From Clavibacter sp. VKM Ac-2872 (lineage in GTDB: Bacteria > Actinomycetota > Actinomycetes > Actinomycetales > Microbacteriaceae), in assembly GCF_015351105.1 (NCBI RefSeq), contig NZ_JADKRR010000001.1, forward strand, positions 1,035,069 to 1,099,068: 64,000 nucleotides of DNA. Reading direction: 5' to 3'. The position numbers and the translations under genes are program-made. Below the pieces are notes generated by a model. That model did no database searches, was not told where the DNA came from, and saw only the letters and a list, made by a program, of their open reading frames with translations. Shown piece after piece: positions 20,546-42,773 of the stretch (its first letter is position 1; the number at the start of each line of letters is the position of its first letter).

Positions 20546-20617
20546 GCCCCGTGATCGCCCGCGCGACGCGCGCCCCGCTGTCCATCAGACGAAGGCCGCG
20601 TGCCCCGTGATCGCCCG
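20546..20617. repeat. 16-bp direct repeat at the 3' end of the acyl-CoA dehydrogenase gene
   Basis: The same 16 bases, GCCCCGTGATCGCCCG, occur at 20546-20561 and 20602-20617. The second copy codes for the RAITG segment near the C-terminus of the acyl-CoA dehydrogenase; the first lies beyond its stop codon and could encode the same five residues. Confidence 0.6.
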
Positions 20618-31632: not shown

Positions 31633-31659
31633 GTCGCGTCCCAGGCTGTGCACGCGGCC

Positions 31660-38207: not shown

Positions 38208-40679
38208 TCAGGCCGCCGGATCCACCTCGGCCTCCAGCGGCGTCGCCGTCACCGAGGTGCCCACGTGCAGCCGGAACGCGCCGGGCTCGCGCTGCCAGCC
38301 GCCGTCCCAGTGCGCGAAGGTCCGCGCGCCGATCGCGACGTCCACCTCGGCGGACGCGCCCGCGGCGAGCTCGACGGACGCGAAGCCCGCGAGCCAGCGC
38401 ACCGGACGGTCGACCGCGGATCCGTCGCGCGACAGGTAGGCCTGCACGACCTGCTTGCCGGCGCGGTCGCCCGTGTTGGTCACGCGGACGGTCGCGGTGA
38501 TCCCGCCGCTGCCGTCCTCGGCGACGCGCAGGTCGTCGATCTCGTGTGTCGTGTAGCCGAGGCCGTGGCCGAACGGGTACGCGGGGGTCGCGCCGGAGCG
38601 GAGCCACGCGCGGTAGCCGACGTGGATCCCCTCGTCGTAGACCACCTTGCCGTCCACCGGCGTGACGGAGCGGACGGGCACGTCCTCCTCGGTCGCGGGC
38701 CAGGTGGTGGGGAGGCGGCCGCCCGGCTCGACGGCGCCGAACAGCACGTCGGCGAGGGCGCCGCCGAACTCCTGGCCGCCGAACCAGGCGAGCAGCAGCG
38801 CCTGCACGTCGTCGCGCCAGGGGAGGAGCACGGGGGATCCGGAGTTGACGACCACGATCGTGCGCGGGTTCGCGGCGGCGACGCGGCGCACGAGCTCGTC
38901 CTGGCGGCCGGGGAGCGCGAGGGTCTCGCGATCGAAGCCCTCGGACTCGACCTGCGCGTTGGTGCCGACCACGACGATCGCGACGTCCGCGCCGGTCGCG
39001 GCCGCGACGGCCTCGTCCAGGATGCGCTCGGGCTCCGACTCGTCGGCCTCGAGGCCCACCGTGATGCCGAGGATGCCCGCGAGGCCGCCGGGCGCGCTGG
39101 TCAGCTCGAACTCGACCTTCAGATCCACCGGCTGGCCCGCCGTCGTCTGCAGGGGCGCGGAGATGGAGGGCGGGGACAGGAGGCTCGCGCCGAGGTCCAT
39201 GCCGATGGGCGCGGCGCCGTCCTCGCGGAGCAGCTCGCCGTCGGCGAAGAGGCGGCCGCGACCGGTGGCGCTGAAGCCGAACAGCACCTCGTCCGTCGTC
39301 GGCGGGGTCCAGCGCGCGGTGATCTCGATGACCGCCGCCGTGCCCGTGGGCGCGTCGCCGCCGAAGTACATGAGGGTCGTCGCCCGGCGGTCCTCCGTGA
39401 ACATCTCCTGGCCGTCGGCGTCGAGGAAGCGCACGAGGGCGCCGGGCTCGCCCGTGCGGGGGTTCCGGATCTCCGCGAGCGGCAGCTCCTGGATCCCGTT
39501 CTGCACGACCGCGCCGCGCGCGTACCGCACCTCCACGCCGTCACCGAGGGCGTCGCGGATCCCGTCGAGCGGCGTGATCACGTGCTCCGGGATGACGGTC
39601 GCGCTGCCGCCGCCCTGCGTGCGCGCCTCGACGGCGTTGTGGCCGATGACGGCGACGGTGCGGAGCGCGGACGCGTCCAGCGGCAGGGCGGCGTCCTCGT
39701 TGCGGACGAGCACCGTGCCGGCCGCCTCCGCCGTGCGCGCGAACGCGACGCCGTCCTCGACCTCGACGGGCGCGGGGGCGACGGCGTCGAATCCCTCGAG
39801 CGCTCCGACGCGGGCGGCGAGGCGCAGCAGGCGGATCACCTTGCGATCGAGGTCGGCCTCGGGCACGCGGCCGTCGCGCACGGCGTCGAGGAGCGCGTCG
39901 CCCCACGCGCCGACGGGGCCGGGCATCTCGAGGTCCTGCGAGGCGCGCGCGGCGTCCACGCTGCGGACGCCCGTCCAGTCGCTGACGACCACGCCGTCGA
40001 AGCCCCACTCGGAGTTGAGCGGGGTCTCGAGCAGGTCGTTCTCGGTGGAGGTCGTGCCGTTGATGGAGTTGTACGAGCTCATCACGAGCCAGGCGCGCGA
40101 CTCGATGACGGCCTTCTCGAACGCGGCGAGGTACAGCTCGCGCAGCGCCCGCTCGGACACGACGCTGTCCGCCGTGAAGCGGTCGGTCTCGTACTCGTTG
40201 GCGACGTAGTGCTTGGGCGTCGCGCCGACGCCGTTCTCCTGGACCCCGCGCACGTACGCGGCGGCGAGGTCGGCGGTGAGCAGCGGATCCTCGCTGAACG
40301 CCTCGAAGTGCCGGCCGCCGTAGGGGGAGCGGTGCAGGTTGATGGTCGGGCCGAGCACGACGTCGACGCCCTTGCGGCGCGCCTCGACCGCGGAGGCGCG
40401 GCCGTAGCGCGCGGCGATCCCGGTGTCCCAGCTGGAGGACAGCGCGGACGCCGACGGCAGGTTGAGCGACGGGGAGCGCTCGTCCCAGACCTCGCCGCGC
40501 ACGCCGCTCGGGCCGTCGGAGACGAGCATGCGACGGAGGCCGATGCCCTCCACGGGCCAGGTCGTCCAGAAGTCGCGGCCGGTGATCAGCTGCACCTTCT
40601 GCTCGAGGGTGAGGCGCGCGGCCAGCTCCTCGAGGCGGGCGGTGGCGGGGTCGAGCGGGGTGGTGTCGTGCGGGTCCAT
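38208..40679 (-). CDS. beta-glucosidase, glycoside hydrolase family 3
   Basis: This 823-residue enzyme hydrolyses beta-glucosides or related sugars. The first domain contains LVSDGPSGVRG, PTINLHRSPYGGRHFEAFSEDP, KHYVANEYETDR and the nucleophile region VVVSDWTGVRS with Asp234. A PA14-type insert (about 390-540) breaks the second domain, as in many bacterial GH3 enzymes; a fibronectin-III-like C-terminal domain ends it. There is no signal peptide, so it acts in the cytoplasm on imported sugars. The ATG at 40679 has GAGGAG six bases upstream. The MFS transporter gene lies 53 bases upstream on the same strand, and a TetR gene is divergent: a local sugar-use cassette. Confidence 0.92.
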   Translation of the reverse strand: MDPHDTTPLDPATARLEELAARLTLEQKVQLITGRDFWTTWPVEGIGLRRMLVSDGPSGVRGEVWDERSPSLNLPSASALSSSWDTGIAARYGRASAVEARRKGVDVVLGPTINLHRSPYGGRHFEAFSEDPLLTADLAAAYVRGVQENGVGATPKHYVANEYETDRFTADSVVSERALRELYLAAFEKAVIESRAWLVMSSYNSINGTTSTENDLLETPLNSEWGFDGVVVSDWTGVRSVDAARASQDLEMPGPVGAWGDALLDAVRDGRVPEADLDRKVIRLLRLAARVGALEGFDAVAPAPVEVEDGVAFARTAEAAGTVLVRNEDAALPLDASALRTVAVIGHNAVEARTQGGGSATVIPEHVITPLDGIRDALGDGVEVRYARGAVVQNGIQELPLAEIRNPRTGEPGALVRFLDADGQEMFTEDRRATTLMYFGGDAPTGTAAVIEITARWTPPTTDEVLFGFSATGRGRLFADGELLREDGAAPIGMDLGASLLSPPSISAPLQTTAGQPVDLKVEFELTSAPGGLAGILGITVGLEADESEPERILDEAVAAATGADVAIVVVGTNAQVESEGFDRETLALPGRQDELVRRVAAANPRTIVVVNSGSPVLLPWRDDVQALLLAWFGGQEFGGALADVLFGAVEPGGRLPTTWPATEEDVPVRSVTPVDGKVVYDEGIHVGYRAWLRSGATPAYPFGHGLGYTTHEIDDLRVAEDGSGGITATVRVTNTGDRAGKQVVQAYLSRDGSAVDRPVRWLAGFASVELAAGASAEVDVAIGARTFAHWDGGWQREPGAFRLHVGTSVTATPLEAEVDPAA

Positions 40680-40732: not shown

Positions 40733-41908
40733 TCACCGGACGCCCTTCACGCGGAAGGCGGCCGCCGCGCCGAGCACGCCGGCCGCGGCGCCGGCGAGGA
40801 AGAGGCCGGGGTAGCCGGCGATCCCCACCACGCCGCTCGCGGCGGTGGGCACGAGCGACTGCGGCAGCGCCTGCGCGATGTTGACGACGCCCAGGTCCTT
40901 GCCGTTGTCCTGGTCGCTCGGCAGCACGTCGGTGATGAGGGCGAGGTCGACCGCGTAGAACGAGCCGATGCCCGCGCCGATGACGAGCTGCGCGACGTAG
41001 ACGACGGCGAGGCTGGGCGCGAGGGCGAGGATCACGAGGCCCACGACCGCGACGAGGGCCGCGGCGGCCACGAAGACCTTGCGGCGGCCCAGCCGGTCGC
41101 TCAGCCAGCCGGCCACGAAGGTGGTGGCGACGACGCCGATCACGTTGAAGAGCGTCGAGACGAACACGGCGTTCGCGACGTCGGCCTGCGCGACCCCGAG
41201 GTCGTCGATGAGGTAGAAGGCGAGGTAGTTCGTGGCGGTCACGGCGCTGGCCGTGAGGAGGAAGCGCATGAGCCAGGCCCAACCGAAGTCGGGGTTGCGA
41301 CGCGGGTCGAACACGAAGGACCCGAGCACCTCCTTGACGCCGAGGCGCGTGGTCGGCCGCTCGGTGAGCACGCGGTCGCGGAAGACGAGCGCGAAGACGA
41401 CGACCACGGCGACGCCGATCGCGCCCGGCACGAGCACCTGCTGCGTCGTGGTGGTGAACAGCTGGACGATGAAGGTGCCGACCACGAGCGATCCGTTCTG
41501 CGCGACGCCGATCGCGGCGGCCACCCGGCCGCGGTTGCGCGGGCGGGCGGAGTCGGCCATGACGGCGATGAGCGCGGCGATGGCGGCGTTGAAGCAGCCC
41601 TGCACCAGCATCCAGGCGCCCACGAGCGCGAGCACGGTGGTCGCCTGCGTGAGCAGGAGCAGCGCGCCGTAGCCGAGGACGACCCCGCCGATGATCCACG
41701 GGCGGCGCATGCCGAAGCGGCCGGGCGTGCGGTCGGAGAGGCGGCCGGCGAGCGGGTTCACGACGAGGGCGACGAGCGCGCCGAGGCCCAGGACGAGACT
41801 GAGCGTGCCCGCCGTGCTGCCGGGCGCCACCTCGGCGACCTTGAGCGCGAGCGACACGATGATCGGCGGCAGCAGGGCGACGAACAGCCCGAGCAGCGCG
41901 ATGGGCAT
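40733..41908 (-). CDS. MFS sugar transporter, GPH/SLC45-like, with frameshifted 5' end
   Basis: The body encodes 12 hydrophobic spans beginning MPIALLGLFVALLPPIIVSLAL, with PLAGRLSDRTPGRFGMRRPW as the MFS loop 2-3 signature and GWLSDRLGRRKVFV as its second-half copy. It resembles sugar/cation symporters that supply intracellular beta-glucosidases such as the GH3 neighbour. The natural start is probably the GTG at 42027, which has GGAGG upstream, but a 14-bp tandem duplication just inside that frame (41988-42015) shifts it out of register; removing one copy restores the frame. As it stands, the first in-frame ATG after the duplication is at 41908, giving 391 residues with almost nothing before the first span. 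Expression may be reduced or lost. Confidence 0.8.
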   Translation of the reverse strand: MPIALLGLFVALLPPIIVSLALKVAEVAPGSTAGTLSLVLGLGALVALVVNPLAGRLSDRTPGRFGMRRPWIIGGVVLGYGALLLLTQATTVLALVGAWMLVQGCFNAAIAALIAVMADSARPRNRGRVAAAIGVAQNGSLVVGTFIVQLFTTTTQQVLVPGAIGVAVVVVFALVFRDRVLTERPTTRLGVKEVLGSFVFDPRRNPDFGWAWLMRFLLTASAVTATNYLAFYLIDDLGVAQADVANAVFVSTLFNVIGVVATTFVAGWLSDRLGRRKVFVAAAALVAVVGLVILALAPSLAVVYVAQLVIGAGIGSFYAVDLALITDVLPSDQDNGKDLGVVNIAQALPQSLVPTAASGVVGIAGYPGLFLAGAAAGVLGAAAAFRVKGVR

Positions 41909-41987
41909 CCCGATCTCGGCGCGACGGGATCCGGGGGGACGGGTGCCGTCGGGGTCTCCTGCGCGGGCGCGCGACGCGCCCTCGGTC

Positions 41988-42018
41988 TGCTGATCTCGGA
42001 CTGCTGATCTCGGACTGC
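41988..42018. repeat. 14-bp tandem duplication in the 5' end of the MFS gene
   Basis: TGCTGATCTCGGAC occurs twice without a gap (41988-42001 and 42002-42015), followed by three more bases of the pattern. Fourteen is not a multiple of three, so the copy number decides the reading frame of the MFS gene read on the minus strand. Confidence 0.9.
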
Positions 42019-42090
42019 GTCGGCCACGGTGCCTCCAGGTTCCCGTCCGCCCTCGTCGGCGGAACGGCACGACGGTAGCACGCGAAACCG

Positions 42091-42117
42091 ACCTACGGTA
42101 GGTATTGAGGGCCCTCA
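42091..42117. promoter_or_regulatory. two palindromes in the tetR/MFS divergent region, likely TetR operators
   Basis: ACCTACGGTAGGT (42091-42103, central G) and TGAGGGCCCTCA (42106-42117) are both perfect inverted repeats. The second lies directly upstream of the tetR -10 at 42126, and the first is near where a -35 would be for the minus-strand MFS promoter (TACCGT on the minus strand at 42077-42072). Their placement suits control of both directions by the TetR protein. Confidence 0.65.
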
Positions 42118-42137: not shown

Positions 42138-42773
42138 ATGGCAGTCGACGAGGGCCCCCGCCGCTACGCCAAGGGCGCGGCCAGGCGCCGCGAGATCCTC
42201 GAGGCGGCGCTCGCCCTCATCGCCGAGCGGGGCTACTCCGCGTCGTCGCTGCAGGAGATCGCCGACGCCGTGGGCATCAGCAAGGCCGGTGTCCTGCACT
42301 ACTTCGACTCGCGCGAGGCGCTCATCGCCGCGGTGCTCGAGGAGCGCGACGCCCACTCCGCCGCCGACTACCGCGAGGCGGTGCCCGACGGGGATCCCGC
42401 GGACATGGTGGGCATGCTCCTGCGCGCGAGCTCGCACAACGCCGACACGCCCGGCCTCGTCGCGCTGTACTCGCGCCTGGTCGTCGACGCGGCCGGCGCC
42501 GAGCATCCGGCGCACTCCTACATCGCCGACCGGTACGACCGCGTGGTCGGATCCGTCGCCGCGCAGGTGCGTGCCCTCGGGGTGCAGCTGCCCGCTGGCC
42601 TCGACCCCGACTCCTTCGCGCGCGTCGCGGTCGCGGTGAGCGACGGTCTGCAGCTGCAGTGGAGCTACCGCCCCGAGATCGACATGCGCGACGCGCTCGA
42701 GCGGGCGATCCGCGCGCTCAGCGGCGGGGCGCTCCCCGTGCCGTCGGCGGATCCGGCCGCGGCGACCGCCTGA
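42138..42773 (+). CDS. TetR-family transcriptional regulator
   Basis: This 211-residue protein has an N-terminal TetR DNA-binding domain: RRREILEAALALIAERGYSASSLQEIADAVGISKAGVLHYFDSREALIAAV, with the helix-turn-helix near residues 35-57. The C-terminal ligand domain is helical and unassigned. It is divergent from the MFS-GH3 pair, with two palindromes in the shared region, so it probably represses that pair until a sugar or glycoside arrives. It has no Shine-Dalgarno site and a -10 six bases before the ATG. Confidence 0.9.
   Translation: MAVDEGPRRYAKGAARRREILEAALALIAERGYSASSLQEIADAVGISKAGVLHYFDSREALIAAVLEERDAHSAADYREAVPDGDPADMVGMLLRASSHNADTPGLVALYSRLVVDAAGAEHPAHSYIADRYDRVVGSVAAQVRALGVQLPAGLDPDSFARVAVAVSDGLQLQWSYRPEIDMRDALERAIRALSGGALPVPSADPAAATA

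What the first reader, a model, noticed from the sequence alone, without database searches (positions are those of the whole stretch)
40733..42027. A 14-bp tandem duplication decides the reading frame of the sugar MFS gene
The best start of this gene is a GTG at 42027 with GGAGG upstream, but its frame does not join the transporter body. The cause is visible: TGCTGATCTCGGAC is present twice in tandem at 41988-42015. Deleting one copy (14 bases) joins the GTG exactly to the MFS frame. The gene is either newly inactivated, switched by repeat slippage, or translated from the weak ATG at 41908. Its GH3 partner and TetR regulator look intact.
Basis: seen in the sequence. Interest (0 to 1): 0.72.

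Follow-up and report, generated by a model that had tools for sequence, protein, structure and literature searches.

The report
Strain-private duplication disrupting a transporter start
A plant-associated bacterium carries a small DNA stutter just after the normal start of a sugar-transporter-like gene, which most likely switched the gene off recently; related species have the plain version, so this looks like an ordinary recent loss rather than a built-in switch.

Summary
Fourteen bases are repeated exactly in tandem at 41988-42015 (exact period-14 array 41987-42018; 0 of 300 shuffles reach it). The GTG at 42027 has a strong ribosome site, but its frame does not join the MFS body and ends after 89 codons. 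The window lies in Clavibacter. The array is private: of 17 other Clavibacter genomes, 16 have the site and all 16 have one copy; 1 lacks the gene. The GTG start is ancestral: in frame in 15 of these 16, in Agreia, and with a similar leader in 3 of 3 relatives of another genus; the leader evolves like coding DNA in that frame. Best reading: a recent slippage duplication that abolishes or strongly lowers transporter synthesis. The body shows no decay (1 private amino-acid codon, 10 private silent codons), so the event is young or the weak ATG at 41908 still gives some protein. No variation supporting a slippage switch was seen, but copies within the species could not be counted. Three other lineages have lost or damaged the locus by different lesions, so it looks expendable. 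Ordinary; low interest.

The parts
41988..42015 (.). 14-base unit in two exact tandem copies; the full exact period-14 match spans 41987-42018
   Evidence: private to this genome
42025..42027 (-). GTG, the ancestral start codon of the MFS gene
   Evidence: same place and in frame in 15 of 16 other Clavibacter genomes that have the site, and in Agreia; similar leader start in 3 of 3 genus-g32 relatives
42032..42036 (-). GGAGG ribosome-binding site of that start
   Evidence: duplex energy -9.3
41758..42027 (-). reading frame that GTG 42027 opens as the sequence stands: 89 codons, out of the MFS frame after the array
41906..41908 (-). ATG at the first residue of the MFS body; weak alternative start
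   Evidence: this methionine is invariant in the 15 aligned relatives and present in 3 of 3 g32 relatives; duplex -3.0
40733..41908 (-). MFS transporter body, 391 aa, open
   Evidence: Pfam MFS_1 113.5 bits, MFS_2 75.1 bits; 93-98% identical over its full length in 15 of 17 other Clavibacter genomes
38208..40679 (-). GH3 glycosidase gene downstream, intact, with its own ribosome site
   Evidence: Pfam; matched over nearly its full length in 15 of 17 other genomes; duplex -7.9
42138..42773 (+). divergent TetR-family regulator, intact
   Evidence: Pfam TetR_N; present in 18 of 18 genomes, own included
42087..42103 (.). imperfect palindrome, possible TetR operator
   Evidence: pattern ACCNACCNNNGGTNGGT in own, in 14 of the 16 other Clavibacter genomes examined and in Agreia; G015 and G016 do not fit it exactly; function inferred

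Best explanation
A recent 14-base tandem duplication, private to this strain or species, arose by slipped-strand copying between two GCAG tetramers 14 bases apart, early in the leader of an MFS transporter gene. Ribosomes that start at the normal GTG now run into a wrong frame and stop 89 codons on, so transporter synthesis is abolished or strongly reduced. The downstream GH3 gene keeps its own start. Shown: the private duplication, the frame break, the ancestral start. Inferred: the slippage route, the drop in protein, the age.
For: One copy in 16 of 16 other Clavibacter genomes with the site and in Agreia. GTG and ribosome site conserved; leader pN/pS 0.56 in the GTG frame against 1.75 and 1.26 in the other two frames, 12 leaders; leader lengths of relatives differ by multiples of three (102, 105, 108). 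GCAG at the same 14-base spacing is seen by eye in 8 of 16 single-copy relatives, including the two nearest, G010 and G013. The locus looks expendable: G012 lacks a start codon at the GTG position; G003 has a frame break in the body and an MFS-to-GH3 fusion; G014 lacks MFS and GH3 orthologues, with TetR close to the next gene. Of the other private indels found against three relatives, the two isolated ones not divisible by three lie between genes, so the sequence is not generally error-ridden.
Against: The body shows no decay: omega 0.08 to the two nearest relatives, against a mean of 0.137 among the 15 others, and 1 private amino-acid codon with 10 private silent ones (the other 15 genomes have 0-7 and 0-19). 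That fits a very young event but also continued use from another start. No reads, expression or peptide data were available.
Confidence: 0.72

Rival explanations
1. The gene stays in use: the conserved ATG at 41908 starts a transporter without the 35-residue leader at a useful level.
For: ATG conserved in all 15 aligned relatives and in 3 of 3 g32 relatives, the g32 relatives having a further in-frame ATG 15 bases upstream of it; the leader is poorly conserved and hydrophobic stretches begin at the first residue of the body; the body is under constraint; G012 also lacks the GTG start yet keeps an open body.
Against: Weak ribosome site (-3.0 against -9.3); the leader evolves as coding DNA, so it is normally translated.
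Confidence: 0.17
2. A reversible on/off switch by slippage of the 14-base repeat.
For: An exact tandem pair can lose a copy by slippage (general knowledge); reversible microhomology-mediated tandem duplications are described in fungi (PMC13207564, passages).
Against: Only two copies, in one genome; no variation at the site in 16 other Clavibacter genomes, one per species.
Confidence: 0.05
3. Assembly error or a variant that arose in culture.
For: Private to one draft genome of 12 contigs; no reads were available to check it.
Against: A 32-base array is shorter than usual sequencing reads (general knowledge; the platform is unknown); few other private frame-breaking indels were found nearby, the isolated ones between genes.
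Confidence: 0.05
4. Programmed ribosomal frameshifting joins the GTG frame to the MFS frame.
For: The two frames overlap from the array to 41758.
Against: Single-copy relatives need no shift. I noticed no slippery motif on reading the sequence but made no computed search for one.
Confidence: 0.01

Closest known systems
Frameshift pseudogenes formed by short tandem duplication (replication slippage or microhomology; general knowledge)
   Same: Exact tandem copy of a non-multiple-of-three unit with a short flanking homology (GCAG), private to one genome
   Different: Lies a few bases after the start codon, so the whole body frame stays open and undecayed
Phase-variable genes with simple sequence repeats (PMC11868660 and PMC5084427, seen only as search listing with the start of the abstract)
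   Same: Repeat inside the 5' coding part; unit length not divisible by three
   Different: Two copies only; no copy-number variation in 16 relatives; no evidence of switching
Microhomology-mediated tandem duplications in fungi (PMC13207564, passages read by find; the original fission-yeast study is recalled only)
   Same: Two-copy duplication bounded by a few bases of homology, in a coding region
   Different: Bacterial; reversibility not shown here

Membership tests
Phase-variable (contingency) locus | copy number varies between related genomes | tested here: not met
   two copies in own, one in 16 of 16 other Clavibacter genomes with the site: a single private change between species; variation within the species could not be tested
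Phase-variable (contingency) locus | repeat array of several units prone to slippage | tested here: not met
   two copies plus 4 bases
Phase-variable (contingency) locus | reversible switching in culture | not testable with these tools
   no reads or cultures
Recent frameshift pseudogene | ancestral intact state in relatives | tested here: met
   14 of 17 other Clavibacter genomes have the GTG start in frame with an open body
Recent frameshift pseudogene | normal start no longer joined to the body | tested here: met
Recent frameshift pseudogene | loss of function | not testable with these tools
   no expression or uptake data
Recent frameshift pseudogene | relaxed constraint in the body (not needed if very young) | tested here: not met
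   omega 0.08 to the two nearest relatives; 1 private amino-acid codon, 10 silent
MFS transporter (Pfam MFS_1 / MFS_2) | score above curated cut-off | tested here: met
   113.5 against 33.4 and 75.1 against 27 bits; none of 19 NCBIfam models listed reached its cut-off, so the substrate is unassigned
Glycoside hydrolase family 3 (neighbour) | N- and C-terminal GH3 domains | tested here: met
   no NCBIfam model reached its cut-off, so the substrate is unassigned

The most novel reading that the evidence does not exclude
The duplication is a slippage-reversible toggle that moves the transporter between full synthesis from the GTG and low synthesis from the internal ATG, one of several independent ways in which Clavibacter lineages turn this transporter down while the divergent regulator is kept.
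Probability: 0.06. Interest if true: 0.45.

Novelty: new member of a known kind. Interest (0 to 1): 0.2.

Why it matters
It is a clear example of a frame-breaking duplication, probably very young, whose ancestral state is visible in relatives, and part of a small pattern: 4 of 18 Clavibacter genomes have lost or damaged the same transporter gene by four different lesions. That suggests the MFS-GH3 pair is dispensable in some niches. It also means that the MFS start in this genome is easily mis-called.

Tried and rejected
Rejected: the downstream ATG as the normal start (upstream GTG conserved in three genera, leader under coding constraint). Rejected: chance repeat. Thought unlikely: general sequence noise. 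The filter for private indels has gaps: it missed the 14-base insertion itself because the alignment to G013 split it in two, so it can miss others; it found 3 places with an 8-base tolerance and 7 with a 20-base tolerance and other gap costs; G010 and G013 covered only about 54 of 64 kb. Led nowhere: promoter and terminator scan (nothing found); PDB by sequence (two weak MFS matches); paper searches on short or microhomology tandem duplications, slippage and phase variation, whose listings named no bacterial two-copy switch that I recognised, without my reading those papers; and on this locus in Clavibacter (one paper; the 9 passages that I saw do not mention this locus). Not done: copy count within the same species (one search gave 17 other genomes of the genus, one per species); fold prediction (switched off).

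Full report
What is there. On the minus strand an MFS transporter gene (body 40733-41908) lies between a GH3 glycosidase (38208-40679) and a divergent TetR regulator (42138-42773, + strand). The best start, GTG 42027, has GGAGG at 42032-42036; its duplex with the anti-SD tail is -9.3, against -3.0 for ATG 41908, -2.4 for GTG 42070, -1.5 for ATG 42118 and -7.9 for the GH3 start. Six bases after that GTG an exact array begins: a 14-base unit twice, with a 4-base overhang (41987-42018). The double unit occurs once in the 3.51-Mb genome. No other array of period 6-60 with a match run of at least 14 and at least its period is in the window; 300 shuffles in 200-base blocks gave 18 such arrays in all, but none with period >=14 and run >=18. 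Read as it stands, the GTG frame leaves the MFS frame at the array and stops at 41758.

Which organism. Of 6 loci found in named genomes, 5 are Clavibacter at 93-98% amino-acid identity and 1 is Agreia at 84%. The species of the window is not established. The 18 genomes are the own genome and 17 others of its genus. One of them, G012, has a chromosome-sized contig whose length I recall as that of C. sepedonicus ATCC 33113 (recalled, from no call).

The ancestral state. I aligned the 260 bases upstream of the body, plus 30 bases of it, from own, 16 other Clavibacter genomes and Agreia; the 17th other genome, G014, has no match to the gene. All 16 others and Agreia have one copy of the unit; 4 of the 16 have exactly the window's letters and 12 have substitutions. 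The GTG is in frame with the start of the body in 15 of 16; the exception is G012, where the aligned position is not a start codon. GGAGG is kept in 15 of 16; the exception is G003. The leader is 105 bases long in 14 of the 16 (G012 counted at the aligned position), 102 in 2 and 108 in Agreia, so length changes keep the frame. Three of 3 relatives of another genus (61-62% identical) also have an in-frame GTG, at 90 bases, with similar first residues; they have a second in-frame ATG 15 bases before the body, and in 2 of the 3 the sequence before the GTG is not GGAGG. In 12 single-copy leaders of equal length the pooled pN/pS is 0.56 in the GTG frame and 1.75 and 1.26 in the two other frames; own, G012, G002, G017 (shorter leaders), G003 and Agreia are not in this count. 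So the leader is normally translated and the double copy is derived.

How it arose (inference). In 8 of the 16 single-copy relatives, including the two nearest (G010, G013), two GCAG tetramers stand 14 bases apart at this place; in the other 8 the second tetramer differs (read by eye). Slipped pairing between them would give a second 14-base copy with a GCAG overhang, which is what the window shows.

What it does. Initiation at the GTG now yields a wrong-frame product. Of the two upstream starts in the MFS frame, ATG 42118 lies upstream of, and GTG 42070 two bases behind, a conserved TACCGT (42072-42077) that looks like a -10 element; both have weak ribosome sites and probably precede the transcription start. 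This is inference: the consensus scan found no promoter. Upstream of the body's own first codon no other in-frame start is left, so the candidate is the weak ATG 41908. Its methionine is invariant in the 15 aligned relatives, and hydrophobic stretches begin at the first residue of the body, so a protein from it could in principle be functional. Against long-standing loss: omega of the body is 0.08 to the two nearest relatives (0.06 to 0.18 over all 15), mean 0.137 (sd 0.036, 105 pairs) among the 15 others, and the window has 1 private amino-acid codon and 10 private silent ones. Either the event is young or some protein is still made; the data do not separate these, and I favour the first.

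A pattern of loss. Of 18 Clavibacter genomes (own plus 17), 14 have an in-frame GTG and an open body. The other four differ in four ways: the window's duplication; no start codon at the usual place in G012; a frame break in the body plus a junction of MFS at about residue 250 to GH3 at residue 312 in G003; and no MFS match and only a distant (37%) GH3 match elsewhere in G014, where TetR (316-951 of L043) lies 26 bases from a reading frame ending at 978. TetR is present in 18 of 18. The pair therefore looks dispensable in some lineages.

Is it noise? Against three relatives (G010 and G013 covering about 54 kb each, G011 all 64 kb), few private indels were found in all three comparisons: 3 with one setting, 7 with a looser one. 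Of the 7, four insertions at 31643-31659 add up to six bases, one is a 15-base deletion at 40674 in the GH3 leader, and the other two, at 20577 and 57153, lie between the likely genes. I did not look into the cluster at 31643-31659. The method has gaps: it missed the 14-base insertion itself because one alignment split it.

Known or new. This is a new instance of a known kind: a short tandem duplication that breaks a frame. It does not meet the two tested features of a phase-variable locus. Reversal by slippage is possible in principle; a fungal precedent of reversible microhomology-mediated duplications is described in PMC13207564 (passages). A comparison of five Clavibacter michiganensis subspecies reports 18 to 114 pseudogenes per genome, most in two of them (PMC5358740, passages), which fits ordinary gene loss in this genus.

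Noticed in passing
L018/L020 (G003), compare window 40733-41908 and 38208-40679: In G003 the MFS body has a frame break near residue 104, and a deletion joins MFS (about residue 250) to GH3 (residue 312).
   Followed up: partly
L043 316-978 (G014): G014 lacks the MFS gene and the GH3 orthologue at this place; TetR remains, 26 bases from the neighbouring reading frame.
   Followed up: partly
L008 (G012), upstream of the MFS body: The aligned GTG position is not a start codon in G012, although GGAGG and the open body are kept.
   Followed up: partly
window 40674: The GH3 N-terminus is 15 bases (five codons, in frame) shorter than in G010, G011 and G013.
   Followed up: no
window 42087-42103: Conserved imperfect palindrome ACCNACCNNNGGTNGGT between TetR and MFS, also in Agreia: possible TetR operator.
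   Followed up: partly
window 31643-31659: A cluster of private insertions adding up to six bases against three relatives.
   Followed up: no
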